Assembly: GCF_002831625.1 (NCBI RefSeq)
Contig: NZ_CP025116.1
Coordinates: forward strand, 1,054,001 to 1,118,000
Direction of reading: 5' to 3'
DNA length: 64,000 nt
Origin: Nonlabens sp. MB-3u-79
GTDB taxonomy: Bacteria; Bacteroidota; Bacteroidia; Flavobacteriales; Flavobacteriaceae
Shown: piece by piece, positions 505 through 61,847 of the stretch
Layout: each line of letters opens with the position of its first letter
How positions within the stretch are numbered: the first letter of the stretch is position 1
Notes under the pieces: generated by a model
Told to the model about the DNA's origin: nothing
Database searches by the model: none
Seen by the model: only the letters and a program-made list of their open reading frames with translations
Translations under genes and position numbers: made by a program

Positions 505-518
505 GCTTTCGCGAAAGC
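505..518. repeat. Dispersed palindrome copy 1 (intergenic)
   Basis: Exact GCTTTCGCGAAAGC core in the gap before the PorP/SprF gene. Symmetry extends one base each side (CGC...GCG). It lies about 95 bases upstream of the putative -7 box and is followed by no T-run, so it does not look like a terminator. Confidence 0.9.
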
Positions 519-601
519 GGAATTAGAAGCAAGAAATCCAAGATCATAAGTAGAATCGTTCTATATTTAGCCATCTGAAACTGAAACCGCAACCTTAAAA
601 C

Positions 602-609
602 TAACTTTG
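602..609 (+). promoter_or_regulatory. Putative -7 box of the PorP/SprF gene
   Basis: TAACTTTG matches the Bacteroidetes sigma-A -7 consensus TAnnTTTG exactly. It ends 5 bases before the ATG at 615, so a start site about 5-7 bases downstream would leave almost no leader. No good -33 TTTG is seen 18-20 bases upstream, so this rests on the -7 box alone. Confidence 0.45.
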
Positions 610-614
610 TGAGA

Positions 615-1529: not shown

Positions 1530-1554
1530 TTCTAATCATGCAAAGAGTACAACC

Positions 1555-3423: not shown

Positions 3424-3452
3424 TACGCATTACTAATCAACCCAATGCTTAT

Positions 3453-3483
3453 AAGTCCATTTGCTCTGCAAATGGACTTTTTT
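3453..3483 (+). terminator. Rho-independent terminator after the OmpA gene
   Basis: A perfect 12-bp stem (AAGTCCATTTGC / GCAAATGGACTT) with a TCT loop, running into a T-tract. It closes the PorP/SprF-OmpA operon. Confidence 0.9.
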
Positions 3484-6320: not shown

Positions 6321-7153
6321 TAATTAGGAATAATATTATTTTAAAAGGAGAAAATGATCGTGCTATACTACTGGATTATGAGTATCAAGAAACCCGTACG
6401 CCCTTACCAGCAGTTGTTTTTTGTCATGGTTATAAAGGATTTAAAGATTGGGGTGCATGGAGTTTGATGGGTGCCGCTTTCGCGAAATCGGGATTCCTAT
6501 TTATAAAATTCAACTATTCACACAATGGTGGTACGGTGGAACAGCCTATTGATTTTCCAGATCTCGATGCTTTTGGAAACAATAATTACAGTATAGAGGT
6601 AAGAGATACCATCAGGGTTTTGGATTGGATAGAAAACTCAGAGTTGCCCGTAGATCGTCATCAAATCAACCTATTAGGGCATTCCCGAGCCGGAGGTATT
6701 ACCACCATAGTAACAGCAAAAGAGCCTAGAGTTTCAAAACTCATTACACTTGCTGGGGTAGCTCATTATGCCGAGCGTTTCCCAGATGCTAAAGGCATAG
6801 AAGAATGGAAAGAAAAAGGAGTGACTTACGTGAAAAATGCCCGTACGAAGCAAGAAATGCCGCTTTTATACCAATTTTATGAAGATTTCCTCCAAAATGA
6901 GGAAGAATTAACCATTCTCAAGCAAGCTGAAAAAATCAAACAACCCCACTTGATCCTTCACGGGGAACAAGATGAAGCAGTTTTGGTAAGTGATGCTCAT
7001 GATCTTCATAAAGCAAGTCCTCATTCCCAATTAAAACTCATCAGAGAAGCAAATCATACCTTAGGCGCAACGCATCCATGGAATTCCAATCTATTACCAG
7101 AAGATTTAAGACAGGCGGTGCAGTGTATGGTTAATTTTTTGAAGGGATCTTAA
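6317..7153 (+). CDS. Alpha/beta hydrolase (dienelactone-hydrolase-like serine hydrolase)
   Basis: 278 residues without a signal peptide, so cytoplasmic. VVFCHGYKGFKDWG provides the oxyanion-hole region, LLGHSRAGG (GxSxxG type, nucleophile Ser near residue 120) the nucleophile elbow, LILHGEQDEAV the Asp and ANHTLG the His. The substrate is unknown. The start codon overlaps the stop of the AddB-like gene (ATGA), yet the functions look unrelated. A one-mismatch copy of the dispersed palindrome (6476-6489) encodes AAFAKSG just after the first hydrophobic strand. Confidence 0.85.
   Translation: MIIRNNIILKGENDRAILLDYEYQETRTPLPAVVFCHGYKGFKDWGAWSLMGAAFAKSGFLFIKFNYSHNGGTVEQPIDFPDLDAFGNNNYSIEVRDTIRVLDWIENSELPVDRHQINLLGHSRAGGITTIVTAKEPRVSKLITLAGVAHYAERFPDAKGIEEWKEKGVTYVKNARTKQEMPLLYQFYEDFLQNEEELTILKQAEKIKQPHLILHGEQDEAVLVSDAHDLHKASPHSQLKLIREANHTLGATHPWNSNLLPEDLRQAVQCMVNFLKGS
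6476..6489. repeat. Dispersed palindrome, one-mismatch copy 2 (in the hydrolase gene)
   Basis: GCTTTCGCGAAATC differs from the core at one base of the right arm and is read as AFAKS. It may be a decayed copy or a site whose codons were constrained by the hydrolase. Confidence 0.7.
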
Positions 7154-10010: not shown

Positions 10011-11918
10011 CTACTGTTTCATCTTAGGTAATTGCATTTCAATAGCCTTATTCTCTCCTACTGTCACTTGGCTGCTTCCTAAAATAGTGACTTGTCCTAC
10101 GGTAAAATCACTTTCCTTAGCCTCAAATATATTGTCCACGTACTTTTGCGGATTGCGATCTATGTATGGGAACCATGTGCTGTGAATTTGGATCATAATT
10201 CTATGTCCTTTTTTAAAGGTGTGCAACACATCTTGTAAAGGGAAATTTACTTGAGTCTTTTTTCCTTCTTTAAAAGGTTCTGGTTTAGAAAAATCATTTC
10301 TAAACCTACCTCTAAAAGTTTCTGCTCGCACCAGTTGTTGGTAACCTGCAAGAGTTATATTTTCAGGGGTGTACTCGCCATTTGGTTCGTCATCTGGATA
10401 GACATCTATAACTTTTACAATAAAATCTGCATCGGTAATGTCTTTTAAGATGACCTCTAGGTTAGCTTGAATTTCTCCAGCAAGTCGCATGTCGTTGTCT
10501 AGAATTTCCGTCTGGAAAGTCAGTACGTCAGGTCTTCTTGAAGCATGTCTCTGGTCGTCGGTCATGTAAGCTCTAGGCGTAAAAGTCACTGGTGTTACTT
10601 CACTTCTAAAAGGAACCGGTTTCATAGGATCGCTTATGTAGGAGTGCTTTACATTCTTGTCGCCGGCTTCATTGATCAACAACTCCCCATTTTTCCCAAA
10701 TCCAAAAGTAATTTGAGCGTCTTTAGGGGGCCATTGCGTAAACTGATTCCATTCTTTTAAACCCGTATCAAACATATAAGCTTCAGGCAACTGTGGGTTC
10801 TTCTCTCCTTTTAAATGATGCTCAAAAAATGGCGTTTCAATATTTTTTTGATAAAAGGTAGAGATACTATCACCAAAGTAGATGTGGTTCACCATTTGCT
10901 TACCGGTTTCTCTAGACCAGTTTCCATGACTCCATGGACCCATTACGATGGTGTTGTTTTTATTAGTAGGATTATTACGTTCTACACTCTTATAGATATT
11001 GAGAGGTCCATAAAGATCCTCAGCATCAAACCAGCCACCTACAGTCATTACCGCATGATCTACATCTGTTAGATGATTGATAATAGCGCGTTTTTGCCAG
11101 AATTCGTCGTAATTAGGGTGTGTTGCTACATCTTTCCAAAAGAAATTATCTGGAAATATATTTTCAGTGACATTTTTCAGTGATCCTAACTTCATGTTGA
11201 AATCATAACTGTCTTTTAAGTTTCCTGCAGCTCTCATTTTATCCCACTTGTCATTGTACCAACTTTCGGTAGTAGGTTCTGTCTGATGTCCAAAAACAGG
11301 ATAAGCCATTAAATAACTCTGTAAAGTGGCTCCCATATGATGAAAGTCATCAAAGAAAAAATCTCCTATAGGTGCTTGCGGAGAAGAAGCTACTAGAGAG
11401 GGGTGAGCTTCTGGAAGTGCCGCTGCGGTATAGAATCCCGGATAAGAAATACCCCATTGGCCTACTTTTTTATTATTGTTAGGGACATTATTGATAAGCC
11501 ATTCTATGGTGTCGTAAGTATCGCTGCTCTCGTCAATGTCTTTCTTATTGTTGACATCGTTACCTGCAATATGTGGTCTCATATTATCAAAGTCGCCTTC
11601 ACTCATCCATCGACCACGCACATCTTGATAGACAAAGATGTAGCCTTCTTCCATCATGAATTTATTAGGTCCTAAGGCGCTTTTGTACTCGTTTTCTCCA
11701 TAAGGTCGCACGCTGTAACAAGTACGCTGTAACATCATAGGATATTCTTTTGAAGTGTCTTTTGGTGCGTAGATGACCGTGTATAAGTTCACGCCGTCTC
11801 GCATGGAGATATTTTCTACCGTTTTGGTATAGTTTTCTTTGACGTAGTCGGAGTTAGGTTGCGCTTTCGCGAAAGCGAAACTAACAACAGCAATAATAGA
11901 TAGAATATAGTTTTTCAT
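10011..11918 (-). CDS. CocE/NonD family hydrolase (X-Pro dipeptidyl-peptidase S15 type)
   Basis: 635 residues with a signal peptide (about 1-19) then QPNSDYVKENYTK. The alpha/beta-hydrolase core has VYQDVRGRWMSEG and the nucleophile motif GQWGISYPG (Ser near residue 148). A C-terminal jelly-roll typical of the S15/CocE family (LEVILKDITDADFIVKV, then IMIQIHSTWFPYIDRNPQ) follows. The family cleaves N-terminal X-Pro dipeptides, acyl esters or glutaryl-cephalosporins; the substrate here is unknown and it should act outside the inner membrane. A palindrome copy encodes the end of the signal peptide (FAFAKA), just at the probable cleavage site. It is in a block of exported hydrolases, each with its own terminator. 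Confidence 0.9.
   Translation of the reverse strand: MKNYILSIIAVVSFAFAKAQPNSDYVKENYTKTVENISMRDGVNLYTVIYAPKDTSKEYPMMLQRTCYSVRPYGENEYKSALGPNKFMMEEGYIFVYQDVRGRWMSEGDFDNMRPHIAGNDVNNKKDIDESSDTYDTIEWLINNVPNNNKKVGQWGISYPGFYTAAALPEAHPSLVASSPQAPIGDFFFDDFHHMGATLQSYLMAYPVFGHQTEPTTESWYNDKWDKMRAAGNLKDSYDFNMKLGSLKNVTENIFPDNFFWKDVATHPNYDEFWQKRAIINHLTDVDHAVMTVGGWFDAEDLYGPLNIYKSVERNNPTNKNNTIVMGPWSHGNWSRETGKQMVNHIYFGDSISTFYQKNIETPFFEHHLKGEKNPQLPEAYMFDTGLKEWNQFTQWPPKDAQITFGFGKNGELLINEAGDKNVKHSYISDPMKPVPFRSEVTPVTFTPRAYMTDDQRHASRRPDVLTFQTEILDNDMRLAGEIQANLEVILKDITDADFIVKVIDVYPDDEPNGEYTPENITLAGYQQLVRAETFRGRFRNDFSKPEPFKEGKKTQVNFPLQDVLHTFKKGHRIMIQIHSTWFPYIDRNPQKYVDNIFEAKESDFTVGQVTILGSSQVTVGENKAIEMQLPKMKQ
11863..11876. 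repeat. Dispersed palindrome copy 3 (in a signal peptide)
   Basis: An exact core read as FAFAKAQ at the end of the CocE/NonD signal peptide, so the repeat supplies the -3/-1 small residues before cleavage. Confidence 0.9.
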
Positions 11919-23428: not shown

Positions 23429-24280
23429 CTATAATAATAAATAGTTCCACGCAGCCAGGAGTTCCCCTTTTGCGATGAGCTCTTTAGCTCGATTGTGTTT
23501 ATCTGTTGTAGAGAGGTTGAATAACTGTTCCGCTTTCGCGAAAGCTACCACTTCTTCCTGCTCAGGTACTCGTTCTACATTTCCTAGTTTACCAAGATCG
23601 TTTCCGGTAAGGATATCGCTTTGTCTAGCATGTTCTGGTAGCGCATCAACGCCTACACCTAGAGTTGCCAAAGGTTTAGGAACCTCAAACATAGCGTCTT
23701 TAGAACGGCAGTACCAGTTACCACCCATTCTTGCAACCGTATCGATTTTAAAAGGGTCGATCTTGTTGTACTCGTCTAACACGTTGTCATTCACATGTAC
23801 CATGACCACTTCACAAATGATGAGGTTACCAGCGCCACCTTCCTGACCTAATTCTACGATTTCTTTTACTTTACACTCAAATTGTACGGGGCTTTCGGCC
23901 ACTCGAGGCGGCGCGACTATATCACTTTTTGCCTCTGTAAGACCCGCTTTTTCAAACTCATTAACACCTTCTCCATATTCTGTGCTGGATAATGACATTT
24001 GTTGAACAATGTCATAGTTTACAATGTTGATCACCACTTCTCCTGTAGCTTTGGCATTCAATAAGGTGTGTTTTACCGAGTTATCTCGTACCCGGCGCGC
24101 AGGAGAAAAAATCATCACTGGCGGATTTGCACTAAAAACATTAAAAAAGGAATAGGGTGATAAGTTCACCTTTCCATTTGCGTCCACAGTACTAGCAAAA
24201 GCTATAGGTCGCGGTTGAACGGCTCCTAGCATAATGCTATGGAGTTGAGCTGTTTCTATGTCTTTAGGATTGAGTTTCAA
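23429..24280 (-). CDS. Flavin reductase family protein (FMN-binding), TTG start
   Basis: About 283 residues from a TTG at 24280 (M)KLNPKDIETAQLH. The core reads LGAVQPRPIAFAST, NLSPYSFFNVFSANPP and FSPARRVRDN, the FMN-binding split barrel of the flavin reductase family. LGQEGGAGNLIICEVV and MGGNWYCRSKD are later conserved strands. An open frame continues upstream to 24586, but that extension is Arg/Phe-rich and not family-like. A TAnnTTTG box on the same strand at 24301-24308 sits between the two positions and fits the TTG start. It probably reduces flavin with NAD(P)H or binds FMN. A palindrome copy encodes VAFAKAEQ near the C-terminus. Confidence 0.88.
   Translation of the reverse strand: MKLNPKDIETAQLHSIMLGAVQPRPIAFASTVDANGKVNLSPYSFFNVFSANPPVMIFSPARRVRDNSVKHTLLNAKATGEVVINIVNYDIVQQMSLSSTEYGEGVNEFEKAGLTEAKSDIVAPPRVAESPVQFECKVKEIVELGQEGGAGNLIICEVVMVHVNDNVLDEYNKIDPFKIDTVARMGGNWYCRSKDAMFEVPKPLATLGVGVDALPEHARQSDILTGNDLGKLGNVERVPEQEEVVAFAKAEQLFNLSTTDKHNRAKELIAKGELLAAWNYLLL
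23532..23545. repeat. Dispersed palindrome copy 5 (in the flavin reductase)
   Basis: An exact 14-base core with no flanking symmetry, read as VAFAKAEQ in a C-terminal helix. Confidence 0.9.
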
Positions 24281-31614: not shown

Positions 31615-31775
<161 letters not shown>

Positions 31776-32315: not shown

Positions 32316-32329
32316 GCTTTCGCGAAAGC
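32316..32329. repeat. Dispersed palindrome copy 8 (phase LSRKR)
   Basis: An exact core with 20-bp total symmetry but unusual flanks (TAC...GTA instead of TCC...GGA), read as TLSRKRI. The flanks differ from the common form yet stay complementary. Confidence 0.9.
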
Positions 32330-32484
32330 GTAACTACCTTAGCATACCTCTTATCTTCTAACAGTTGCGAGAGTAAGATGTTTCCTGTTAGGCCTGAGGC
32401 GCCTATAATGATAGCGGTAAATTCCATTTGTGGAAGTTTGTTAATAGTGAAGGTTATATTTCTTAAAGGTAGTAATTTTACGAT

Positions 32485-42800: not shown

Positions 42801-44711
42801 ATGAAATTGGACGCAAAAATCCCTAAAGGAAAACTGGAAGATAAATGGAGTAATTATTTAATGACTTCTAGACTCATCAACCCAACAAATAAGAAAAAAC
42901 TCCATGTCATTGTCGTTGGTTCTGGATTATCTGGAGCCGGTGCGGCAGCTACTCTAGCAGAATTGGGTTATGAGGTAAAATGCTTTTGCTATCAAGATTC
43001 TGCCAGACGAGCACATTCTGTAGCCGCTCAAGGAGGAATCAATGCTTCAAAGAATTATCAGCACGATGGAGATAGTGTGTACCGCATGTTTTATGACACA
43101 CTTAAAGGCGGCGATTTTAGATCCAGAGAAGCAAACACTTATAGACTCGCTGAGCTTTCAGCCCCATTGATAGATCACTATGTGCAGCAAGGAGTCCCTT
43201 TTGCTCGAGAATACGGAGGCACTTTAGTTAATAGAAGTTTTGGAGGCGTACAAGTACAGCGCACTTTTTATGCAAGAGGGCAAACCGGCCAACAGCTGTT
43301 ACTGGCAGCTTACTCGCAATTGTACAAAATGATACGAGCTAAAAAAGTAGAAATGTTTCCTCGTAGTGAGATGTTGGATCTGGTGGTTATTGATGGAAAA
43401 GCAAAAGGTATTATCATACGGGACTTAGTCACTGGTGAATTAAAACGCTATGCAGCAGATGCTGTGGTACTGGCTACTGGTGGCTATTCTCGTGTTTTCA
43501 GATTGTCAACCCTAGCAATAGGCTGTAACGGAAGTGCTTTGTGGAAAGCGCATAAAAAAGGGGCTTATTTTGGTGCGCCTAGTTTTACACAGATACACCC
43601 TACTGCTTTGCCGCAGTCCAGTGATGCCCAATCTAAGCTTACCTTAATGTCGGAGTCTTTGAGAAATGATGGGCGTATTTGGGTTCCCAAAGTTAAAGGA
43701 AACACAACCGAAGCAAATGCTATTCCTGAGGAAGAGCGCGACTATTATTTAGAGCGTCGGTATCCAACTTTTGGAAATCTAGCTCCGCGAGATATCGCCT
43801 CGAGAGCCGCTAAAGAGCGTTTGGACGCCGGTTATGGCGTAGGACGCTTAAAGAATGCCGTCTACCTTGATTTTAAACACGCCATTGATAAACTCGGGTT
43901 GGAGACCATCAAAGATCGCTACGGGAATCTCTTTAAGATGTATAAAAAAATTACCGGCATCGATGCGTATACTACGCCAATGCTCATCTCGCCAGCAGCT
44001 CATTTTTCAATGGGCGGGCTCTGGGTAGATTATGAATTAATGACGACCATTCCAGGCTTGTATGCTATAGGAGAATGTAATTATTCTGATCATGGGGCTA
44101 ACCGTTTGGGGGCAAATTCATTGCTTCAAGCAAGTGTAGACGGTTACTTTATATTACCCAATACCATTAATAATTACCTAGCAGGAGAGATCAAAAAGGA
44201 GCAGCCTACTGTAAACGATCCCGCTTTCGCGAAAGCGGAACAACAAACTCAAGAACATATAGATCAACTACTAGCAGTTCAAGGAACTAAAACCGTGGAT
44301 CATTTTCATAGAGAACTAGGTCAAGTGATGTGGCAAGAATGTGCCATGAGTAGAAATCAAGATGGGCTTATAAAAGCCATTGCTCAAATCAAAAACATTA
44401 GAAAGGAGTTTTGGAAGGATGTCAAAGTTACGGGTCATGATAAAGAAATGAATACAGAGCTAGAAAAAGCCTTGCGCCTTGCTGATTTTATAGAGTTGGG
44501 AATATTAATGTGTACCGATGCATTGCAACGTGAAGAATCTTGTGGAGCACATTTTAGAGAAGAATATCAAACGGAAGAAGGAGAAGCAGTGCGTGTAGAT
44601 AAGGATTACAGTTATGTTTCTGCTTGGGAATACGATCAGGGCAACTTTAAATTACATAAAGAATCCCTAGAATTTGAATTTGTAACAGCTTCATTGAGAA
44701 GCTATAAGTAA
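42801..44711 (+). CDS. sdhA: Succinate dehydrogenase flavoprotein subunit
   Basis: 636 residues. The FAD-binding motif is [36 protein letters not shown] includes the His that covalently holds FAD. GALSFQ-type catalytic regions appear as [10 protein letters not shown] and [17 protein letters not shown] (catalytic Arg). The enzyme oxidises succinate to fumarate. A palindrome copy encodes PAFAKAEQ at the start of the C-terminal helical domain, at a position that is helical and variable in the family. It is followed by 137 bases without a signal before sdhB. Confidence 0.97.
44223..44236. repeat. Dispersed palindrome copy 11 (in sdhA)
   Basis: An exact core with CCGC...GCGG symmetry, read as PAFAKAEQ at the capping position of a helix in the C-terminal domain. 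Confidence 0.9.
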
Positions 44712-48078: not shown

Positions 48079-48113
48079 TCCTCATTCCTCATTCCTCATT
48101 CCTCATTCCTCAT
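48079..48113. repeat. 7-bp tandem array, 5 units
   Basis: Five perfect TCCTCAT units. The last one covers the stop codon (TGA on the minus strand) of the sensor kinase ending at 48110; the rest lie between it and the unknown secreted gene. Confidence 0.95.
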
Positions 48114-50422
48114 CCCCTAATCCTCACAACAACCTCAGTTCCTACATCTGGAATTAATCCAGCATTTTTTACTTCCATATCGATCTTACAATCATGCAAC
48201 TCGTTTAATAGCGCCACACGGTTTTTGATATTGCCCAACCCTTTAGAATCTCGTTTCTTTTGATGCTCTGTTTTTATGGCCTTGGATTTTTCTCGACCGA
48301 TTCCATTATCGGTTATGGTGACTGTAATTCCTTGTTCCGCTTTCGCGAAAGCAACATTTAAAAAACCTTTTTCTTTTTTATAACGCAATCCATGCCAAAC
48401 CGCATTTTCTATGATAGGTTGCAGCAACATAGGCGGCACTTGTATTTTAGTATCTTTTAAAGAAGGGTCGACATCTAAAGTAAAGTCAAATTTATCTTTA
48501 AAACGTTCGTGCTCCAGCTTTAAATACAAGCCCAAAAGATCTATTTCCTTTTCTAGCGGTATAAAGTCCAGCTCGCTATTTTCTAAAACGCTACGCATCA
48601 ATTTAGAAAAATCTGCCAGGTATTTGTTGGCCGCACGTTCGTCATTTTGTGCGATATAGTTATTTACAGAATTGAGCGCATTAAAAATAAAATGCGGATT
48701 CATCTGACTGCGCAATGATTTTAAAGCGAGTAAATGGTTGTTGATTTTTTGCTGCTTGTTGTTGCGGTACATAAAATACGCCAGCGTGAGCAACAAAAGA
48801 CTCAAGGCAACAAGCGAATAAATGATCCAGCGTTGTCGCTGGTTCATTTCCTGTGTAAGCTTGCGCTCGGTATTGATCAAGGCAATTTTATTCTCGGTAA
48901 GCTCGCGATCTTTTTCTAAAGTAAGGATCCTGGTCTGTTTAGAAACCAGTTCTTTGGTTTTTCTAGAGCTTTCTTCTAATTCATTTTCTTTCTCTAGGTA
49001 CAAGGCATCAACCGTGTTGATATACAATTCATTATAAGCCAGTGCTGTTTTAGTATTTCCCGCTTTTTTATTGAGTTCATACAGACTTTTTGCAGCGTCC
49101 TTTTTTACTTCTAAGTCGTTATTTTCTGTTGCTTCGTCCAGACTGGATTCATAATAGGTGATCGCCTCTTTAATCTTGTTTTGGGACTTTAAAGCTTCGG
49201 CAATGTTGAGTTGTTCTTTTTGTTTGGACAAGCGATTTATTCCATTTGAGGTGGAAGGCTCATAAGAATTTCCTGTAACTCTTTCTTCTATCTCATCCTC
49301 AGCTATCGCCACCTCGTTTAAAAAACCCTCTTTATTGGCAATTTTTTGTGGAGCTTTAGCTTCGTCGCTTTTAATATCATCCAGGATTTCAATATTATTC
49401 TTACGCAAGGCAATTTCCTTGTCAAACTGAGAGTTGCTTCGGTAAAAGTCGGCTGTTTGTGATTGGGCAACAACATTAGCCGTACGGCCTTCTTTTTTAG
49501 ATTCTTGAATAGCTCTATTGTAATAGGCCTCTGCTTTATCCACCTGACCTATTTCATTTAATAGCGCAGCGATTTTTGAATTGATGGAAGTCACTTGTAT
49601 GTTTAAACTGGCGTTTTGAGCAAGTTGCAGCGCCTGTTTATAGATTTGCAATGCCTTGTCGCTATCGTTTGTTTTAGCGTAAGCAGCAGCGAGACCCGTC
49701 AGTCTTTTTATTTCTAAAGTATTAGAACCTCCCGTGCTTTGCTTCTTTTTTGATCTACTAGTATTGGAAACATCTGCAGCTAAATAAGCGGCAATGGCTT
49801 CTTGGTAATTACCATTGAGACGCAGCATGTCTGCTTTTTTTATGACAAGAGAAAGGCTGCTGTTGAGCTCCTCTGCCTGTGTATAATTAGCAATAGCTAG
49901 ATCGTATTGTTTATTAAAGCTATAAAGGTCGCCTAGTTTTTCATAAGCCGCACTTTCTTGGGTTTTGGTAAGTGATTTAGGGTTGTTAGATAAAGCAGCA
50001 ATAAGGAAATCGGCTGATTTTTGTGCGTCTTTTTTCAGAAAGATTTGTGCGCTATCCATGGCCACTTGATAAGGAATAGGGCTGCGCTTTTTTTGATCTT
50101 GCTCATCACTTTGCACGCGTATTTCTATATCGTCATTACTTCTGATACGGTAATAAACGGTCTCAAAATTAAGACCTCTGATAACAATTTCTTCGCCCAT
50201 ATTTGCTGGTAAACTAAATTTACCGAGAGCATCTGTAGTTGCATAACGGCCCATTTTCCCTTCTATATTCACTCCAGAAATAGGCGCTCCGCTTTCACTC
50301 AATACACGTCCCTGCAGTACCATATTGGTCTCTGCAGTTCGCGGCGTTGCGAACTCCTTGTTTTGTGCCACTGCTATTTGAAAAGTAAAAAGCAGGAATA
50401 ATAAAGTGATTGTGTGTTTCAT
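48110..50422 (-). CDS. TPR-containing LytS-type sensor histidine kinase
   Basis: 770 residues. A signal peptide (1-20) is followed by a carboxypeptidase regulatory-like domain (about 33-95, GRVLSESGAPISGVNIEG). Tetratricopeptide repeats run from about 120 to 480 (YEKLGDLYSFNKQYDLAIANY and similar). A membrane helix lies near 530-552 (IIYSLVALSLLLLTLAYFMY). The kinase domain has MNPHFIFNALNSV with the phospho-accepting His, LQPIIENAVWHG (N box) and TDNGIG (G box). It should sense a periplasmic signal and phosphorylate the LytTR regulator. A palindrome copy encodes VAFAKAEQ in the loop before the G box strand. Confidence 0.93.
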   Translation of the reverse strand: MKHTITLLFLLFTFQIAVAQNKEFATPRTAETNMVLQGRVLSESGAPISGVNIEGKMGRYATTDALGKFSLPANMGEEIVIRGLNFETVYYRIRSNDDIEIRVQSDEQDQKKRSPIPYQVAMDSAQIFLKKDAQKSADFLIAALSNNPKSLTKTQESAAYEKLGDLYSFNKQYDLAIANYTQAEELNSSLSLVIKKADMLRLNGNYQEAIAAYLAADVSNTSRSKKKQSTGGSNTLEIKRLTGLAAAYAKTNDSDKALQIYKQALQLAQNASLNIQVTSINSKIAALLNEIGQVDKAEAYYNRAIQESKKEGRTANVVAQSQTADFYRSNSQFDKEIALRKNNIEILDDIKSDEAKAPQKIANKEGFLNEVAIAEDEIEERVTGNSYEPSTSNGINRLSKQKEQLNIAEALKSQNKIKEAITYYESSLDEATENNDLEVKKDAAKSLYELNKKAGNTKTALAYNELYINTVDALYLEKENELEESSRKTKELVSKQTRILTLEKDRELTENKIALINTERKLTQEMNQRQRWIIYSLVALSLLLLTLAYFMYRNNKQQKINNHLLALKSLRSQMNPHFIFNALNSVNNYIAQNDERAANKYLADFSKLMRSVLENSELDFIPLEKEIDLLGLYLKLEHERFKDKFDFTLDVDPSLKDTKIQVPPMLLQPIIENAVWHGLRYKKEKGFLNVAFAKAEQGITVTITDNGIGREKSKAIKTEHQKKRDSKGLGNIKNRVALLNELHDCKIDMEVKNAGLIPDVGTEVVVRIRG
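48339..48352. repeat. Dispersed palindrome copy 12 (in the sensor kinase)
   Basis: An exact core read as VAFAKAEQ in the turn between two strands of the ATP-binding domain. Confidence 0.9.
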
Positions 50423-50503: not shown

Positions 50504-50517
50504 GCTTTCGCGAAAGC
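50504..50517. repeat. Dispersed palindrome copy 13 (intergenic)
   Basis: An exact core in the gap between the divergent kinase and SIMPL-like genes, with CGC...GCG symmetry. Confidence 0.9.
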
Positions 50518-52260: not shown

Positions 52261-53454
52261 ATGATGAAAAATTTAAAAACAATTGCTTTTACATTAAGTG
52301 TTACCGCATTAATGGCCTGCAAAGGGACTACGGCTGATAACGGATTAGAAATCGCAACAAACAGGATAGAAGCCCCACAAACTGCTGCCAACATCGCAAC
52401 AGTAGTAGAAGAGCCGGTAACCATTCAAATAGCCTTACTTCTAGACACCAGTAATAGTATGGATGGGTTGATTGATCAGGCCAAAACCCAGCTTTGGGAC
52501 GTGGTCAACAAAATGTCTGGGGCGCATTGCAATGAGCAACAAGCTTTATTAGAAATCGCACTTTATGAGTACGGTAACAGCAGATTAAATTCAGAAGAAG
52601 GTTTTGTGCGTCAAGTACTCTCCTTCTCCACCGACCTAGACCTGATCAGCAAAGAACTATTTAGCTTAAGGACCAATGGAGGAGAAGAGTATTGCGGTAC
52701 TGTAATTGGTGCCTCTTTAAAACAATTGGAGTGGAAAAAAGGAAAAAACGATCTTAAAATGATTTTTATAGCTGGAAATGAAGGCTTTAATCAAGGGGCT
52801 GTACCTTTTTCTTCGAGTATTGCTCAAGCTATAGAAAAAGACGTGGTGGTCAACACCATTTTTTGTGGAGACTGGAATACGGGGGCACAATTGAAGTGGA
52901 AAGAAGGCGCGACTTTAGGAAAAGGACAATACATGAACCTGGATCACAACCAGAAATCTGCCTACGTCGCTACTCCTTATGACGATCAGATTTTGAATTA
53001 CAACCATCTGCTTAATGATACTTATATAGCTTTTGGCCGTCAGGGGTATGAAAATAAAGCCGTTCAAATGCTTATGGACGAAGCGGTTCAAGAAGTATCT
53101 GCACAGGCAAATGTGAAGCGTACCTTAGCCAAGTCCTCTGCAAATTATCGCAATTCCAGCTGGGATCTTGTTGATGCTTTAGATGATGAAGACATGAAGG
53201 GAAAAGTGCTTACTGAAGATAATATAAAGACCTTACCAGACAGTATTCGCACTAAAAGTAAGAAGGATATTACCGCTTTCGCGAAAGCGAAAAAACAAGA
53301 GCGCATCTCCATACAAAACAAGATCAAAGAACTCAATCAAAAAAGAGATCAATATATCGCGACACAAGCACTCACCGAGACTAACGGATTAGAGTCGGCT
53401 ATGTTTAAGGCGATCAAGAAGCAATCGGTCTCAAAAAACTACAAATGGGAATAG
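52261..53454 (+). CDS. von Willebrand factor A domain lipoprotein
   Basis: 397 residues. Lipoprotein signal MMKNLKTIAFTLSVTALMAC, so membrane-anchored. The vWA domain (about 55-260) has the metal site LLDTSNSM (DxSxS form), Thr in LRTNGGEEY and the last Asp in LKMIFIAGNE. After it a helical, Lys-rich tail continues to the end (KKQERISIQNKIKELNQKR). It should bind a partner protein or metal; the function is unknown. A palindrome copy encodes TAFAKAKK at the start of this tail. The upstream 606 bases are a tandem-repeat array, so its transcript has a repetitive leader. Confidence 0.85.
   Translation: MMKNLKTIAFTLSVTALMACKGTTADNGLEIATNRIEAPQTAANIATVVEEPVTIQIALLLDTSNSMDGLIDQAKTQLWDVVNKMSGAHCNEQQALLEIALYEYGNSRLNSEEGFVRQVLSFSTDLDLISKELFSLRTNGGEEYCGTVIGASLKQLEWKKGKNDLKMIFIAGNEGFNQGAVPFSSSIAQAIEKDVVVNTIFCGDWNTGAQLKWKEGATLGKGQYMNLDHNQKSAYVATPYDDQILNYNHLLNDTYIAFGRQGYENKAVQMLMDEAVQEVSAQANVKRTLAKSSANYRNSSWDLVDALDDEDMKGKVLTEDNIKTLPDSIRTKSKKDITAFAKAKKQERISIQNKIKELNQKRDQYIATQALTETNGLESAMFKAIKKQSVSKNYKWE
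53275..53288. repeat. Dispersed palindrome copy 14 (in the vWA lipoprotein)
   Basis: An exact core, read as TAFAKAKK in the lysine-rich helical tail. Confidence 0.9.
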
Positions 53455-56466: not shown

Positions 56467-56468
56467 CT

Positions 56469-56617: not shown

Positions 56618-58315
56618 TCACCCAGGAATAGCAGCAATCAACTTCTTGGTATAAGCACTCTGCGGATTTTCATACAAGGCATCGGCTTCGTTTTTTTCTT
56701 CTATTTTTCCTTGGTTCATGACGATGACCTGATCGCAAAAGTATTTGACTACCGCCAGATCGTGAGAGATGAATAAATAAGAGAATCCAAAATCTTCTTT
56801 GAATTCGTTGAGCAGATTCAACACTTGGGCCTGTACCGAAATGTCCAGCGCACTGACGCTTTCATCACAAACGATCAGCTTGGGTTCTAAAGCCACAGTT
56901 CTTGCGATTCCTATACGTTGTCGCTGCCCACCACTAAATTCATGCGGATACCTGTTGTAGTGCTCTTCGGTAAGTCCTACGCGTTTTAATAAATGCAGCA
57001 CTTTTTCCTTTCTATCAGCGTTGTCGGCACCTATTCCATGCCATTTCATAGGTTCTATAATCGCTTGTCCTACGGTAAGCCGTGGATTCAACGAAGCAAA
57101 TGGGTCTTGAAAGATGATCTGGATTTCCTTTCTCAATTGGCGCATGGCCGCAGCTTTTAAATGGGTAATATCTTGACCTCGATACATAATAGTACCGCTG
57201 CTGACGTCCTTCAAACGCAGAATCAGATTTCCTAAGGTGCTTTTTCCACAACCACTTTCTCCTACCAGACCTAGGCTTTCGCCTGGGTAGATATTAAAAC
57301 TTACTCCATCCACAGCTCTAAAATACTCTTGTTTAGAGAACAGCTTTTTTTGTAATGGAAAATCTTTGACGACATCGATCACTTGTAATAAAGGGGTCTT
57401 GTTGTAGATGTTCTTATGCAATTCTTCTCGTTGCTCTTTAGTCACTAACTCGTCAGACACGCTCTGTTCTACAAAATCTTTGATGGTCGGTAAGTTGCGT
57501 AGCCGCGTTTTGGTGCTCGGTCGGGAGGCAATCAGCGCTCTTGTATAGGCTTCTTTTGGGTGTTCAAAAATGTCATTTGCCGCTCCTTGTTCTACAATTC
57601 GGCCTTGATACATCACTATGATCCTGTCGGCTATGGAGTGCACCAGGGAAAGATCGTGAGAGATAAAAAGAATGCTCATGCCGTATTCCTTTTGAAGCGC
57701 TTTAAGCAGTAGTATAATTTCTTTTTGAACCGTTACGTCAAGTGCGGTTGTAGGTTCGTCTGCAATGAGTAATATAGGTTTACAGGCTATTGCCATAGCA
57801 ATCATCACACGTTGCATCTGTCCACCACTGATCTCATGAGGAAATTTTGAAAAGGTAATTTTGGGTGTAGGAAGTTTTACTTTTTCAAAAAGCTGCAGGA
57901 CTTCTTTTTGAGCAGCAGCTGCACTCATTTTTTGATGTTGTAGCAGTACTTCCACGACTTGATTTCCACAAGAGATGGTAGGATTCAGGGAACTCATAGG
58001 TTCTTGGAAGATCATGCTGATCTCGCTTCCGCGAAAGCGGGACCATTCTCCATCTTCTAGTTCTAATAAATCTTTTCCTTGCAAGGAGAGTTCTTGAGCC
58101 GTTATTTGTGCGGTTGTTGAAGGCAAAAGTCCCATAAGAGCTTTGCTGGTAACCGACTTGCCGCTTCCAGATTCTCCTACTACAGCGAGAATCTCATTTT
58201 TATAAATATCAAATCCGATGTCGTGCAAGACTTGAACGCGTTGTTTTCCATTAGAAAAACTTACGTTGAGGGCTCTTATAGAGGCTATGGTTTTATTTGG
58301 AGATGATTTGCTCAT
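56618..58315 (-). CDS. Fused two-domain ABC transporter ATPase (DppD-DppF-like)
   Basis: 565 residues with two complete nucleotide-binding domains. The first has GESGSGKSVTS, HEISGGQMQRV and LLIADEPTTALDVT; the second GESGCGKSTLG, HEFSGGQRQRI and LIVCDESVSALDIS. Fused ATPases of this kind drive oligopeptide or dipeptide importers, or GsiA-like glutathione importers. No permease or binding-protein gene is in the window, so the substrate is unknown. Its start overlaps the exonuclease stop by 23 bases. A one-mismatch palindrome (58025) is read as SRFRGSE. Confidence 0.93.
   Translation of the reverse strand: MSKSSPNKTIASIRALNVSFSNGKQRVQVLHDIGFDIYKNEILAVVGESGSGKSVTSKALMGLLPSTTAQITAQELSLQGKDLLELEDGEWSRFRGSEISMIFQEPMSSLNPTISCGNQVVEVLLQHQKMSAAAAQKEVLQLFEKVKLPTPKITFSKFPHEISGGQMQRVMIAMAIACKPILLIADEPTTALDVTVQKEIILLLKALQKEYGMSILFISHDLSLVHSIADRIIVMYQGRIVEQGAANDIFEHPKEAYTRALIASRPSTKTRLRNLPTIKDFVEQSVSDELVTKEQREELHKNIYNKTPLLQVIDVVKDFPLQKKLFSKQEYFRAVDGVSFNIYPGESLGLVGESGCGKSTLGNLILRLKDVSSGTIMYRGQDITHLKAAAMRQLRKEIQIIFQDPFASLNPRLTVGQAIIEPMKWHGIGADNADRKEKVLHLLKRVGLTEEHYNRYPHEFSGGQRQRIGIARTVALEPKLIVCDESVSALDISVQAQVLNLLNEFKEDFGFSYLFISHDLAVVKYFCDQVIVMNQGKIEEKNEADALYENPQSAYTKKLIAAIPG
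58025..58038. repeat. Dispersed palindrome, one-mismatch copy 15 (in the ABC ATPase)
   Basis: GCTTCCGCGAAAGC, one base off in the left arm, read as SRFRGSE between the Walker A and signature motifs of the first domain. Confidence 0.7.
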
Positions 58316-59003
58316 CTGTGAGTATCGATTCTTTGCGTAATTTAAGTATAATTTGTGCTACAGCCACCACGTCTTTTTCACAGTAGGTAGCAATGCGTTG
58401 GAGGTCGTGATCTTGGTAATACACATCTCTAACTTGTGAGCCGTCGATGTCATCTTTAGGCGATGGTATTCCTAATATACGGGTCAATAACTTAAGGCTG
58501 GTATAATGTTTATAGTCTCCAAACTTCCACAGTTCCAAGGTATCTAAATGCGGGACCTCCCAAGGTTTCTTTCCAAACAGATTCAGCTTTGAAGGGATCT
58601 CTATTCCTAGAATTACCATGCGTCTAGCGATATAAGGAAAGTCAAATTCCTTACCATTATGAGCACACATCAAATGATTTCTTCCTGAAAAGTGTTCATT
58701 GAGTAATGCCGCAAACTCTTCTATCAACTCTTTTTCTTCTCCCACAAAGCTGCGGGTTCTAAACTGCTGTCCATCGCGATTCACAAAATAACCAACAGAG
58801 ATGCACACGATCTTACCAAACTCTGCCCAGATACCAGCACGATCATAAAATTCTGCTGGGGTGAACTCTTCCTTGCGCTGGTATTTTGTCTTATCAGCAT
58901 ACAATTGCTGGTCGATTTCTTCCAACTGGTCAAAACGCTCCTGCAGCGGTACGGTTTCTATATCAAGAAACAAGATGTTTGCTAAGGAGAGTTTCGAAAT
59001 CAT
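58293..59003 (-). CDS. 3'-5' exonuclease-like protein (PolB-exonuclease/DEDD fold)
   Basis: 236 residues. ILFLDIETVPLQE has the first acidic pair (Asp, Glu), CAHNGKEFDFPYIARRM the second Asp, and TYCEKDVVAVAQII the final Asp of the DEDD set. This is the family of predicted exonucleases related to the proofreading domain of PolB. It should trim DNA or RNA ends, but the substrate is unknown. The start overlaps the PBP1A stop by one base (TAATG). Confidence 0.88.
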   Translation of the reverse strand: MISKLSLANILFLDIETVPLQERFDQLEEIDQQLYADKTKYQRKEEFTPAEFYDRAGIWAEFGKIVCISVGYFVNRDGQQFRTRSFVGEEKELIEEFAALLNEHFSGRNHLMCAHNGKEFDFPYIARRMVILGIEIPSKLNLFGKKPWEVPHLDTLELWKFGDYKHYTSLKLLTRILGIPSPKDDIDGSQVRDVYYQDHDLQRIATYCEKDVVAVAQIILKLRKESILTDEQIISK

Positions 59004-61363
59004 TACAGCATGTCTAATTCGTTACTACTACTATTAGGTTGATTAGTTCCTTTTAGAGGATCGTTACCTTGACTTTTTTCATATTCATCGCAGTCTATTT
59101 CAATCGAGAGATTTTCTGGCTTTTTAAAAGGCTCTTTAGAAATCTCTAGGGTTTCGTCTGCATACATACGTTTCATATAACTTCCCCAAATAGGAAGGGC
59201 CATAGTAGCTCCTTGACCGTATTTAGTGCTTCCAAAATGTACAGATCTATCATCAGCGCCAACCCAAACACCGGTGACTAAATTAGGAACCATTCCCATA
59301 AACCATCCATCAGAATTGTTTTGTGTGGTTCCTGTTTTACCAGCTATATCATTCTTAAAATCATATGGGTAATCGGTAATGACTTCTTTATAAAAGTCGG
59401 TATTTGCAGCCCAAGAGCTGTTTCCTCTTAGTTTTGCTCCACTACCTATTTTGGTAACACCTTCCATAAGATTTACGGTTACGTAGGCGGTTTCTGGATT
59501 CAATACATCCTTGCTTTCTGGCACGTATTGATAGAGTACCGTACCGTTTTTATCTTCAATACTGGTTACCAAAACAGGTTTGTTGTAAATCCCACCGTTT
59601 GCAAACACCCCATAGGCAGCCACCATTTCATACAGACTTACATCTGCTGTTCCTAATGCAAGTGAAGGAACTGCCACCATGTTATCAGTGTTTATTCCTA
59701 GTTGGCCTGCGCGATCTACCACTGGTTGAGGTCCTACTTCGTCCATTAAACGTGCTGAAATGGTGTTTTTAGATTTTGCCAAGGCCTCTTGTAAGGTCAT
59801 GACATTACCATAATCACCATTAGAATCTACAGGTGTCCAGTCGTTCATGTTGCCGTGTTTACCTGCAGGAATGGTATACTCTCCATCAGGATATTTTTTA
59901 CAGGGGCTGTATTTCAATAAATCTATCGCAGCAGAATATAAGAAAGGTTTAAAGGTAGATCCCGCTTGACGTTTACCTAATTCTACATGATCGTACTTAA
60001 AATACTTGTGATTGATACCACCTACCCATGCTTTTACATGTCCGGTTTGTGGTTCTAAAGACATCAATCCAGTGTGTAAAAACTGCTTGTAATAACGTAT
60101 GGAGTCCATAGGGGTCATGATCGTATCTCGTTCTCTAAACTTTGATTTCCAATCAAAAATAGTCATGTCGGTCTTCTCACTAAAGCTCTTGATAATAGCA
60201 GCTTCGGCGATTCCTTTTTTCTTCATTTCCTTCCATCGTACCGATCTTTTCATGGCAGAGTTGAGGTTGCTTTCAATTTGTGTTACCGTTAGATCTGTAT
60301 ACGGAGCTGTTTTATTGCGCTTTTGCTGGTGATCAAACTCTGCTTGCAGACGTTCCATATGCGCATAAACAGCTTCTTCGGCCATTTTTTGCATTCTATA
60401 GTCTATGGTAACGTTAACTTTAAGTCCATCATTGTAGAGGTTAAAGGGCTCTCCAGTTTCTGGATTGATATGATCTTTAGTCCAAACGGTTAGCCAGGAC
60501 CTTAGGTTTTCGCGGAAATAAGTCCCCATACCTTCATTATGACTAGCGGAGTTGTAGTTTAATTTTATAGGAATTTCTCTAAGGCTGTCTTTTACCGCCG
60601 CTGTCATTTTGTTGTTACGCACCATTTGTACAAATACTTGGTTGCGTCTGTTAAATGATTTTTCTTTAGAAATTTCACGATGCGGATTGTATTGTCTAGG
60701 GTTTTTAAGCATAGCAACAAATACAGCACTTTCAGAAACATTTAGTTGACTAGGCTCTTTGTCAAAATAAATATTAGAGGCACTTCTTATTCCTATAGCT
60801 TGATATAAAAAATCAAACTCGTTTAAGTATTGAGTGATGATTTCTTCTTTAGTGTATTGTTTTTCTAATCTTGAAGTAATGATCCATTCCCGTATTTTTT
60901 GAATCAATCGCTCTAATTTATTGCTACTGGCTTGTTCTGTAAAATAGAGTTTTGCCAGTTGTTGGGTAATGGTACTCGCACCACCTTTAGTTCCTAAAAA
61001 GGCAGCTGCTCTTGCGGTTCCAAAACCATCAATACCACTGTGATCCCAAAAACGCTCATCTTCTGTAGATACTAAAGCGTCTACAAGGTTTTTAGGTAAA
61101 TCATCAAATTTTATGGGTTTTCTATTTTCATTATAGAAACTTCCTAGTGTTTTCCCATCTGCAGTTAGGATTTCTGTTGCCAGTTCTGTCTGCGGATTTT
61201 CTAATACGGTGTGGTCTGGTAAATCACCAAAGACTTCCCATGCGGCTAATAAAAACAGAAGAATTACAAATCCTATGCCTACCGCATACATCTTCCAGAA
61301 GAGTGAAATATTCTTCTTATTTCCTTCTTTTTCTTGAGCTATTTGTGCTTTAGTTGCTGCCAT
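59003..61363 (-). CDS. Penicillin-binding protein 1A (bifunctional peptidoglycan synthase)
   Basis: 786 residues. A cytoplasmic N-tail and a membrane helix (about 25-45) precede the GT51 domain with STEDERFWDHSGID (catalytic Glu) and GASTITQQLAKL. The transpeptidase has AGSTFKPF (SxxK), SKNTIS and KTGTTQNNSDGW. It is the main peptidoglycan-making class A PBP, complementing PbpC at 28-30 kb. It overlaps gldH by 14 bases. Confidence 0.95.
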   Translation of the reverse strand: MAATKAQIAQEKEGNKKNISLFWKMYAVGIGFVILLFLLAAWEVFGDLPDHTVLENPQTELATEILTADGKTLGSFYNENRKPIKFDDLPKNLVDALVSTEDERFWDHSGIDGFGTARAAAFLGTKGGASTITQQLAKLYFTEQASSNKLERLIQKIREWIITSRLEKQYTKEEIITQYLNEFDFLYQAIGIRSASNIYFDKEPSQLNVSESAVFVAMLKNPRQYNPHREISKEKSFNRRNQVFVQMVRNNKMTAAVKDSLREIPIKLNYNSASHNEGMGTYFRENLRSWLTVWTKDHINPETGEPFNLYNDGLKVNVTIDYRMQKMAEEAVYAHMERLQAEFDHQQKRNKTAPYTDLTVTQIESNLNSAMKRSVRWKEMKKKGIAEAAIIKSFSEKTDMTIFDWKSKFRERDTIMTPMDSIRYYKQFLHTGLMSLEPQTGHVKAWVGGINHKYFKYDHVELGKRQAGSTFKPFLYSAAIDLLKYSPCKKYPDGEYTIPAGKHGNMNDWTPVDSNGDYGNVMTLQEALAKSKNTISARLMDEVGPQPVVDRAGQLGINTDNMVAVPSLALGTADVSLYEMVAAYGVFANGGIYNKPVLVTSIEDKNGTVLYQYVPESKDVLNPETAYVTVNLMEGVTKIGSGAKLRGNSSWAANTDFYKEVITDYPYDFKNDIAGKTGTTQNNSDGWFMGMVPNLVTGVWVGADDRSVHFGSTKYGQGATMALPIWGSYMKRMYADETLEISKEPFKKPENLSIEIDCDEYEKSQGNDPLKGTNQPNSSSNELDML

Positions 61364-61847
61364 TTTGCACTTGTTTTTCTATACTATATCCTACTTCGAG
61401 TATGCCTTTGAGTTGTGCATCTCCATTTACTTCCCCTGTTTTTCTCATCGCGTGTTTTAAAGCTAGCTGATAAGTTCCGCTTTCGCGAAAGCGGATGCCT
61501 TCTTTTAACCACAGCTTATTTTCATATACATCGTTAGAGCCTGACCCTAAAAAGCTGCCGTCAGTCTTTGTCATGCGGTACTCTAATGTATCTGTAACGA
61601 CTTTTCCTTGCGGAAATTTCATTTGTGAGATCAACCAGAGGTTATTGTATTCATAATCGTGCGTATTGCGCAGGTTAATAAAGAGATTATAGCTTGCTAG
61701 GCTGTCTTGAGGGGGGATTTGAAATGTGGCTACGTCTTCAATCGACCAGCCAGTTTGCGGCAAGTCATGGTACTCTGCATTTACTAACTGCTCATCACAG
61801 GAGGTGATCAAGGTCATAACTGCCAGAAAAAATAGGTATCTGTTCAC
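61350..61847 (-). CDS. gldH: Gliding motility lipoprotein GldH
   Basis: 165 residues beginning with GTG. Lipoprotein signal MNRYLFFLAVMTLITSC with the lipidated Cys17. The mature part (YHDLPQTGWSIEDVATFQI, NLRNTHDYEYNNLWLI) matches the GldH family needed for gliding and T9SS in flavobacteria. The GTG shares its first base with the ricT TAG stop. A palindrome copy is read as IRFRESGT. Localisation is the membrane facing the periplasm. Confidence 0.93.
   Translation of the reverse strand: MNRYLFFLAVMTLITSCDEQLVNAEYHDLPQTGWSIEDVATFQIPPQDSLASYNLFINLRNTHDYEYNNLWLISQMKFPQGKVVTDTLEYRMTKTDGSFLGSGSNDVYENKLWLKEGIRFRESGTYQLALKHAMRKTGEVNGDAQLKGILEVGYSIEKQVQNGSN
61479..61492. repeat. Dispersed palindrome copy 16 (in gldH)
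   Basis: An exact core with 20-bp symmetry, read as IRFRESGT, a phase used otherwise only by the two one-mismatch copies in dinB and the ABC gene. Confidence 0.9.

What the first reader, a model, noticed from the sequence alone, without database searches (positions are those of the whole stretch)
505..61492. Highly iterated palindrome GCTTTCGCGAAAGC, about one per 4 kb
The 14-base core occurs exactly at 505, 11863, 18809, 23532, 26286, 29486, 32316, 38392, 44223, 48339, 50504, 53275 and 61479, and with one mismatch at 6476, 33467 and 58025. A random 14-mer is expected far less than once in 64 kb, and this GC-rich one sits in an AT-rich genome. Copies are fairly evenly spread and mostly inside unrelated genes. 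It contains TCGCGA, and the best copy extends to 22 bases. This resembles HIP1 of cyanobacteria or an uptake/nucleoid/replication signal, but I know of no described role for it.
Basis: seen in the sequence. Interest (0 to 1): 0.75.

Follow-up and report, generated by a model that had tools for sequence, protein, structure and literature searches.

The report
Evenly spaced palindromic chromosome tag
Some marine bacteria carry the same 14-letter mirror-image DNA word hundreds of times, spaced about every four to five thousand letters, which looks like a self-recognition tag on their DNA, although no reader protein is known yet.

Summary
GCTTTCGCGAAAGC occurs 563 times in the 3.18 Mb chromosome; the reversed control occurs 0 times. 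Five of 299 family genomes have 408-857 copies, the other 294 have 0-19. The rich ones belong to Nonlabens (own genus, inferred), Dokdonia and one unnamed genus.

New properties:
- At the orthologous places compared, copies change mainly by substitution; no inserted motif was seen.
- The 14-mer is conserved well above its surroundings (7 of 10 against 6.2%).
- Both flanks carry the same soft signal to about +18, without left-right covariation, so no hairpin.
- Intergenic DNA is enriched 2.6-3 fold.
- Spacing is strikingly even (CV 0.36 in G242; random 0.95).

Most likely it is a self-recognition signal of the DNA-uptake type, built up by recombination-coupled drive; a chromosome-organising site is a close rival. 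No reader is identified: the one candidate tried (DUF5689) is only 35% identical between two species sharing the motif. Two methylase families are absent from the own genome, and there is no second ParB. Several motif-poor relatives carry clustered copies in apparently transferred DNA.

The parts
505..518 (.). exact 14-mer, intergenic
   Evidence: intact in G010 ortholog
6476..6489 (.). one-mismatch copy (GCTTTCGCGAAATC) in ORF 6317-7153
11863..11876 (.). exact 14-mer, AFAK frame, in S15-type peptidase ORF 10011-11918
   Evidence: GCTTTGGCGAAAGC in G010/G242
18809..18822 (.). exact 14-mer, AFAK frame, in S9 peptidase ORF 17800-20667
   Evidence: intact in G010 and G242
23532..23545 (.). exact 14-mer, AFAK frame, in flavin-reductase-like ORF 23429-24586
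   Evidence: GCTTTTGCAAAAGC in G010/G242, no indel
26286..26299 (.). exact 14-mer, AFAK frame, in M28 peptidase ORF 24468-26978
   Evidence: intact in G010 and G242
29486..29499 (.). exact 14-mer inside the 22-base palindrome TTCC-core-GGAA, AFAK frame, in PBP1C ORF 28052-30415
   Evidence: intact in G010 and G242
32316..32329. exact 14-mer, LSRK frame of ORF 31744-32556 (called intergenic by the ORF rule)
   Evidence: intact in G010 and G242
33467..33480 (.). one-mismatch copy in DNA polymerase IV ORF 32485-33573
38392..38405 (.). exact 14-mer, AFAK frame, in PurN ORF 38215-38778
   Evidence: intact in G242
44223..44236 (.). exact 14-mer, AFAK frame, in SdhA ORF 42801-44711; two motif-poor relatives read EFDK at this place
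48339..48352 (.). exact 14-mer, AFAK frame, in TPR/histidine-kinase ORF 48110-50422
   Evidence: ACTCTAGCGAAAGC in G242
50504..50517 (.). exact 14-mer, intergenic (divergent)
   Evidence: intact in G242
53275..53288 (.). exact 14-mer, AFAK frame, in ORF 52261-53454 (no Pfam family)
58025..58038 (.). one-mismatch copy (GCTTCCGCGAAAGC), same variant in G242
61479..61492 (.). exact 14-mer, FRES frame, in GldH ORF 61350-61847
   Evidence: intact in G242

Best explanation
The palindrome is most likely a self-recognition signal of the DNA-uptake-sequence type. A dyad-symmetric reader (a dimer or symmetric surface complex) binds a site of about 50 bp: the near-invariant 14-bp core, a strong +1 G, then a soft A/C-rich outgoing strand that avoids G. 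DNA carrying a site is taken up or recombined preferentially. Alleles with the site therefore replace alleles without it, so copies accumulate by point substitution, even at the cost of amino-acid changes, and most easily between genes. A second site within one recombining fragment adds little, so neighbouring sites repel and end up about one fragment length (4-5 kb) apart. SHOWN: genome-wide excess, exactness, change by substitution at the places compared, conservation, a footprint alike on both sides, intergenic enrichment, even spacing, clade restriction, and presence of ComEC and a DUF5689 gene.
For: Even spacing: G242 (inferred N. xylanidelens) CV 0.36 against 0.95 random (0 of 4000 draws as low), 1 of 60 gaps under 1.5 kb against 17.7 expected; Dokdonia G206 CV 0.72 against 0.94, P 0.016, 5 of 49 gaps under 1.5 kb against 14.0. 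None of 179 and 75 similarly frequent 8-mers was as even; the nearest in G242 (0.38) is the motif's own sub-word TTCGCGAA, the next 0.72. The first 100 sites of G000 give CV 0.69 against 0.99, P 5e-5. Steep exact:one-mismatch:two-mismatch ratio 73:12:5. Substitution without indel at the three G000 sites that are changed in relatives, and at SdhA. 7 of 10 aligned sites perfectly conserved against 6.2% of aligned 14-mers, P 4e-7. Intergenic enrichment without preference for convergent or divergent gaps. Flank preferences shared by Nonlabens and Dokdonia. Even spacing, spacing that matches recombination-fragment length, excess in non-coding DNA and depletion from new segments are described for DUS/USS (passages of PMC2397512, PMC7811141, PMC1939737). 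A low-GC stretch of G000 with glycosyltransferase genes has 1 site in 20 kb. Phage P12024S has 0 sites in 35 kb. Natural transformation is known in the family, with self-DNA preference in R. columbina and no confirmed signal (PMC7965970 section 16), and needs a pair of outer-membrane and surface proteins unlike known uptake machinery in R. anatipestifer (PMC8459023). DUF5689, the domain of that surface protein, is in 24 of 24 genomes tested.
Against: [quoted passage not shown] the very even spacing here fits the rival at least as well. Natural transformation of Nonlabens or Dokdonia is not shown in anything I saw. A type IV pilus-type ATPase passes the cut-off in only one of the five rich genomes. 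DUF5689 is only 35% identical between G000 and G242 although both use the same motif, and its best tree needs 3 changes for the rich rows, with 0% of 200 bootstrap trees uniting them, though well-supported branches alone do not exclude one group. ComEC and DUF5689 are equally present in motif-poor relatives. In two of three 20-kb G000 stretches with few motifs, the 5 proteins I scanned are not obviously foreign. Phage contigs carry copies with host-like flanks, and a xenologous SdhA carries one. The G190 flanks (11 sites) match less well.
Confidence: 0.45

Rival explanations
1. It is an intracellular binding site of a dimeric chromosome-organising (nucleoid, SMC-loading or segregation-type) protein that needs one anchor every 4-5 kb; direct selection on the cell keeps sites exact and spaced.
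For: Perfect dyad core with a footprint alike on both sides and no left-right covariation, even spacing, conservation at orthologous places, a site in the gap after rpoB in all 5 rich genomes, and copies with host-like flanks in some viral contigs. Even spacing has been read as a sign of replication, repair or compaction roles (Karlin as cited in a PMC1939737 passage).
Against: Gaps of about 20 kb without a site exist in G000. 294 of 299 sampled family genomes live with 0-19 copies. Each rich genome has exactly one ParB_N protein and no Noc-like paralogue. 28 bits of core exceed what recognition of 563 sites in 3.2 Mb needs (my arithmetic).
Confidence: 0.33
2. HIP1-like: the word accumulates because an orphan DNA methyltransferase modifies an internal sequence such as TCGCGA or CGCG.
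For: It is a palindrome with a CG-rich centre; HIP1 tracks orphan MTases (PMC4390886, start of abstract and passages).
Against: G000, G242 and G190 have no PF00145 C5-methylase; G000, G242 and G206 have no PF01555 N4/N6-methylase, so no member of either family is shared by all five rich genomes. The word is longer than an MTase site (recalled) and one-mismatch copies are rare. PF02086 and PF02384 were not tested.
Confidence: 0.08
3. A palindromic Chi-like recombination or repair hotspot that works in both directions.
For: Density of one per 4-5 kb and even spacing; presence in some viral contigs.
Against: Chi is read on one strand and need not be palindromic (recalled). Half-sites are not iterated on their own: GCTTTCGC occurs 15 times and GCGAAAGC 15 times in the window against 13 whole cores.
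Confidence: 0.07
4. A mobile or REP-type palindromic element copied into the genome.
For: Many identical copies; intergenic enrichment.
Against: Changed orthologs of G000 sites differ by substitutions without indel. Two G242 sites (L040:15350, L042:18456) align to G000 only at 69-71% identity with gaps inside the core, but there the motif-bearing side is the shorter one, so no insertion. No left-right covariation, so no selected hairpin; even spacing.
Confidence: 0.02

Closest known systems
DNA uptake sequences (DUS of Neisseria, USS of Pasteurellaceae)
   Same: Hundreds of exact copies, few one-mismatch copies, soft flanks, fairly even spacing, intergenic excess, sharing between some genera and absence from others.
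   Different: A 14-bp perfect palindrome with flanks alike on both sides; lower density (one per 4-5 kb against about 1 kb for USS); Bacteroidota; 4 of 5 rich genomes lack a pilus ATPase above the cut-off; uptake not demonstrated.
HIP1 (GCGATCGC) of cyanobacteria
   Same: Highly iterated palindrome within genes and between them, clade-restricted.
   Different: 14 bp plus flanks against 8 bp; no shared MTase in the two families tested.
parS / Noc-binding sites (consensus recalled, not from a call)
   Same: TTTC...GAAA palindrome of 14-16 bp bound by a dimer.
   Different: Half-site spacing differs by 2 bp; hundreds of copies; no second ParB-family protein.
Chi sites (recalled)
   Same: Similar density.
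   Different: Chi is asymmetric and short; here only the full palindrome is iterated.

Membership tests
DNA uptake sequence (DUS/USS) | Genome-wide excess of one exact word | tested here: met
   563 copies, control 0; ratio 73:12:5
DNA uptake sequence (DUS/USS) | Even spacing | tested here: met
   more even than one paper grants to uptake sequences
DNA uptake sequence (DUS/USS) | Excess in non-coding DNA but many copies in genes | tested here: met
   42-43 of 101 outside ORFs
DNA uptake sequence (DUS/USS) | Depleted from recently acquired DNA | tested here: inconclusive
   1 site in a 20 kb stretch with glycosyltransferases and 0 in one phage, but present in some viral contigs and in a xenologous SdhA
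DNA uptake sequence (DUS/USS) | Preferential uptake of DNA bearing the word | not testable with these tools
   needs an assay
DNA uptake sequence (DUS/USS) | Cognate receptor tracks the word | tested here: inconclusive
   the one candidate tried, DUF5689, does not track it (35% identity between G000 and G242; 3 changes on the best tree); other receptors untested
HIP1-type sequence | Highly iterated palindrome | tested here: met
HIP1-type sequence | Co-occurs with orphan MTase of an internal site | tested here: inconclusive
   not met for PF00145 and PF01555 (absent from G000 and G242); PF02086 and PF02384 not tested
parS / Noc site | Second ParB-family protein (Noc), or few clustered sites as for parS | tested here: not met
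   one ParB_N per rich genome; at least one site in each of the 20 sampled stretches and the window
REP / mobile palindrome | Inserted as a unit (longer than the empty site); hairpin selected | tested here: not met
Chi | Asymmetric word read on one strand | tested here: not met
   palindrome; half-sites not iterated alone in the window

The most novel reading that the evidence does not exclude
Bacteroidota have their own uptake or self-recognition language: a long, dyad-symmetric DNA signal read by a non-pilus outer-membrane uptake machine, shared between Nonlabens, Dokdonia and one more genus. Another clade of the family writes in different dialects built on TTTC/GAAA half-sites: ATTTCCGAAGTAA in G076, and TTCNGAA-centred words in G101, G073 and G012. 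These words turn up in the very gap after rpoB that holds the palindrome in rich genomes. Temperate phages carry the palindrome too.
Probability: 0.27. Interest if true: 0.88.

Novelty: new variant of a known kind. Interest (0 to 1): 0.74.

Why it matters
Self-DNA preference in a transforming member of the Flavobacteriaceae has been reported without a confirmed signal (PMC7965970 section 16). This motif is a ready-made candidate in two cultured marine genera, testable with one competition assay. If it is instead a chromosome organiser, it is one with a measurable 4-5 kb repeat, directly testable by ChIP or Hi-C. Either way the word can serve as a tracer of gene flow from motif-rich donors into motif-poor relatives.

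Tried and rejected
Considered a parS cluster near the origin, because in several motif-poor genomes copies are clustered and a 933-bp pair recurs. The one cluster whose ORFs I translated (L003) reads as a heavy-metal island: CusA-like transporter, outer-membrane efflux protein, P-type ATPases, multicopper oxidase (names by eye from the translations, no family search). A 405-aa ORF carries the pair in L003, L005, L009 and L011, so I read these clusters as transferred DNA. Not supported: Noc, C5 and N4/N6 MTases, mobile insertion, hairpin, terminator or promoter (no gap-class preference). A structure job for it was accepted after three busy errors and had not finished when last asked, so no fold evidence is used. 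The sampled stretches were too few to test an origin-terminus gradient. SdhA was a poor phylogenetic marker because it is xenologous in this genome; rpoB was used instead.
Full report
CHECK OF THE OBSERVATION. The window lies in a single-contig genome of 3,184,776 bp (G000) with 563 exact copies and 0 of the reversed control word. In a 464 kb sample of that genome (window plus 20 stretches of 20 kb) there are 73 exact, 12 one-mismatch and 5 two-mismatch copies; the i.i.d. expectation is 0.00, 0.03 and 0.63. The core behaves as one unit: in the window all 13 copies of CTTTCGCGAAAG extend to the 14-mer, and half-sites are not iterated alone.

WHO HAS IT. Of 299 genomes of the family (own included), 61 have at least one copy, but only five have hundreds: G000 563, G010 578, G242 664 (same genus), G190 408 and G206 857; the other 56 have 1-19. 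Of 148 genomes drawn from the order (own included), the 127 from other families include 3 with one copy each. Names come from a thinned scan of genome contigs that stopped at its limit with 111 stretches; of the 80 loci listed, 38 are titled Dokdonia, 25 Nonlabens, 3 Flavobacteria bacterium BBFL7, 3 the MAG Cytophagaceae SAT149, and 11 others (tally mine). G242 and Nonlabens xylanidelens DSM 16809 share a contig length of 1,129,740, and G206 and Dokdonia sinensis SH27 one of 483,439; the names, and the own genus as Nonlabens, are inferred from that. On an rpoB tree of 30 genomes the rich rows form two groups, Nonlabens and Dokdonia plus G190, and well-supported branches force at least two changes.

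COPIES IN POOR RELATIVES. In several poor genomes the copies are clustered. I fetched 16 stretches around such copies. The one cluster whose ORFs I translated reads, by eye, as a heavy-metal island, and a 405-aa ORF carries the recurring 933-bp pair in four stretches and a single copy in three more. I read these as DNA received from motif-rich donors. Most poor genomes with single scattered copies were not followed up.

HOW COPIES COME AND GO. Of the 13 exact window copies, 11 could be compared in G010 or G242 at about 71-84% local identity: 8 are intact in at least one of them, and 3 are changed by substitutions without indel (GCTTTTGCAAAAGC, GCTTTGGCGAAAGC, ACTCTAGCGAAAGC). Seen from the other side, two G242 copies align to G000 only with gaps inside the core, at 69-71% identity; there the motif-bearing side is the shorter. 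In gap-free alignment 7 of 10 G000 sites are perfectly conserved in G242, against 6.2% of 44,877 aligned 14-mers (P 4e-7; flank identity 0.78), and 7 of 7 the other way; the coarser map places 4 further G242 copies in or at the edge of aligned blocks where G000 has none. The window's SdhA is 87% identical to that of two other genera but 54-66% to its own genus. At 44223 those two relatives read GAGTTTGATAAAGC and GAATTTGATAAAGC (protein EFDK), the window reads the motif (AFAK), without indel. The direction (gain in Nonlabens) is inferred. In the gap after rpoB (rpoC assumed next) all 5 rich genomes have the exact core and 0 of the 25 others do.

SHAPE OF THE SITE. In 137 Nonlabens (G000, G242) and 75 Dokdonia (G206) sites, +1 is G in 91%; A is preferred at +3, +4, +7, +10 and +13; G is depleted on the outgoing strand; +2 differs between the genera (G or A against T). 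That count pools both sides; counted apart, each side shows the same pattern (G at +1 0.87-0.96; G at +4 to +18 only 5-7%), and both +1 bases are G in 113 of 137 and 64 of 75. G190, with 11 sites, fits less well. Left and right flanks show no excess of complementarity in Nonlabens and G206 at +2 to +10, which suits two half-sites read by a symmetric protein rather than a hairpin. Intergenic and genic sites share the pattern. The three-base rhythm of the A positions is unexplained.

WHERE IT SITS. In the sample of G000, G010 and G242, 42 of 101 sites lie outside ORFs of at least 100 aa with 84% of bases in ORFs; with a 70 aa rule 43 of 101 against 14% intergenic, binomial P about 1e-10 to 1e-12. 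Tandem, divergent and convergent gaps are used 30, 8 and 4 times (one at an edge), close to their share of intergenic bases, which speaks against a promoter or terminator role. In genes the AFAK frame dominates, 43 of 59.

SPACING. The first 100 copies of G000 (all that one search listed) have gap CV 0.69 against 0.99 for random placement, P 5e-5, and 2 gaps under 1 kb against 17.6 expected. In contiguous blocks of G242 (280 kb, 64 sites) the mean gap is 4.34 kb, CV 0.36 against 0.95, 0 of 4000 random draws as low; in G206 (240 kb, 53 sites) CV 0.72 against 0.94, P 0.016. None of 179 (G242) or 75 (G206) similarly frequent 8-mers is as even; the nearest in G242 is the motif's own sub-word. Between conserved sites at 18.8 and 26.3 kb of the window each of the two species has exactly one site, at different places; this is one case, not a test. 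Spacing in G190 was not tested.

MECHANISM. Exactness, change by substitution at the expense of protein sequence, intergenic excess and a length-dependent repulsion fit the published account of uptake sequences accumulating by molecular drive (passages seen: PMC1939737, PMC7811141, PMC2397512). Natural transformation is established in the family. In Riemerella columbina own DNA competes and, at equal amount, foreign DNA does not; frequent k-mers were listed but no signal was established (PMC7965970, passages and section 16). In R. anatipestifer the essential genes include ComEC, DprA, ComF, RecA and a pair of outer-membrane and surface proteins unlike known uptake machinery, the latter with DUF5689 (PMC8459023, passages and section 19). 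ComEC is in 20 of 20 genomes tested and DUF5689 in 24 of 24. In G000 a 961-aa protein with a CarboxypepD_reg-like domain (barrel assumed) precedes a 471-aa DUF5689 protein on the same strand, and divergently upstream lies an endonuclease/exonuclease/phosphatase family gene that contains a motif copy. Orthology to the Riemerella pair rests on domains and order, not on a sequence comparison.

AGAINST IT. Known uptake words are not palindromic, and one paper argues that they are less evenly spaced than compaction signals should be, while citing Karlin's view of even spacing as a sign of replication, repair or compaction (PMC1939737). A pilus-type ATPase passes the cut-off only in G242 among the rich genomes. 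DUF5689 is 35% identical between G000 and G242; its best tree needs 3 changes for the rich rows and 0% of 200 bootstrap trees unite them, although well-supported branches alone would allow one group, so it is unlikely to be the sequence-specific reader. Of 85 scored copies in the 80 listed viral loci, 20 have host-like flanks (score at or above the host's tenth percentile) and 65 do not; the two contigs annotated hold Mu-like transposition genes and a CI-type repressor, and a head-maturation protease. Nonlabens phage P12024S has none in 35 kb. Phage carriage could reflect residence in the chromosome or an intracellular advantage.

KNOWN KINDS TESTED. HIP1-type: G000 and G242 have neither a PF00145 nor a PF01555 methylase; PF02086 and PF02384 were not searched. 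parS/Noc: one ParB_N protein in each rich genome. Mobile element: no insertion seen at the sites examined. Literature: the 14-mer is in no paper of the held library; the 10-mer TTTCGCGAAA is in 10 papers whose listed titles concern other matters; word searches gave nothing relevant. The library lacks most subscription journals, so this is not proof of absence from print.

A POSSIBLE DIALECT. In G076 (100 kb sampled) the word TTTCCGAAG with flanks (A)ATTTCCGAAG(T)AA occurs 25 times against 0.2 by an order-3 Markov model. TTCNGAA-centred words are enriched 3.6-7.9 fold in G101, 2.6-6.3 in G073 and 1.5-5.2 in G012 of the same rpoB clade, and at most 2.5 fold in G018, G040, G201 and G144, 2.7 in G087 and G111; control words reached 4.8 fold, on counts of 4 or fewer. 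In the gap after rpoB a TTCNGAA word occurs in 5 of the 9 members of that clade (G073, G074, G076, G101, G287) and in 1 of the other 21 genomes (G220). Their spacing is not clearly even (lowest P 0.049 of five tests), so they may be a different thing.

VERDICT. A real, strongly ordered genome-wide signal, not found in the literature I could search, in two named genera and one unnamed genus; its class (uptake-type drive or chromosome organiser) is not settled, and its reader is unknown.

Noticed in passing
L447-L451 (G076 C1:300001-400000): Another iterated word, (A)ATTTCCGAAG(T)AA, 25 copies of TTTCCGAAG in 100 kb against 0.2 expected, in a motif-poor genus; possible dialect.
   Followed up: partly
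L462-L466 (G101), also G073 and G012 samples: TTCNGAA-centred words enriched 1.5-7.9 fold; such a word also sits in the gap after rpoB in 5 of 9 clade members.
   Followed up: partly
window 42801-44711: SdhA is 87% identical to two other genera and 54-66% to its own genus: a xenologous replacement or extra copy.
   Followed up: partly
L003, L011, L014 and similar: Shared gene island carrying motif copies in several motif-poor genomes, metal-resistance by eye in L003; 599-616-aa ParB-like genes lie about 6-21 kb from motif copies in G012, G101 and G201.
   Followed up: partly
L233, L241 (IMG/VR): Phage contigs (one Mu-like with a CI-type repressor) with motif copies that have host-like flanks.
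   Followed up: partly
L478:3273-8786: 961-aa CarboxypepD_reg-like protein, DUF5689 protein and EEP nuclease gene together; DUF5689 diverges fast (35% identity within the genus).
   Followed up: partly
gap after rpoB in G093, G087, G012 (L346, L357, L356): A hairpin CCCGCGAAAGCGGG sits where rich genomes have the motif; it does not recur in the G087 and G012 samples.
   Followed up: partly
window, most frequent 10-mers: A short tandem-type repeat TGCCTACTGCC (10-mers with 18-20 copies) in the window.
   Followed up: no
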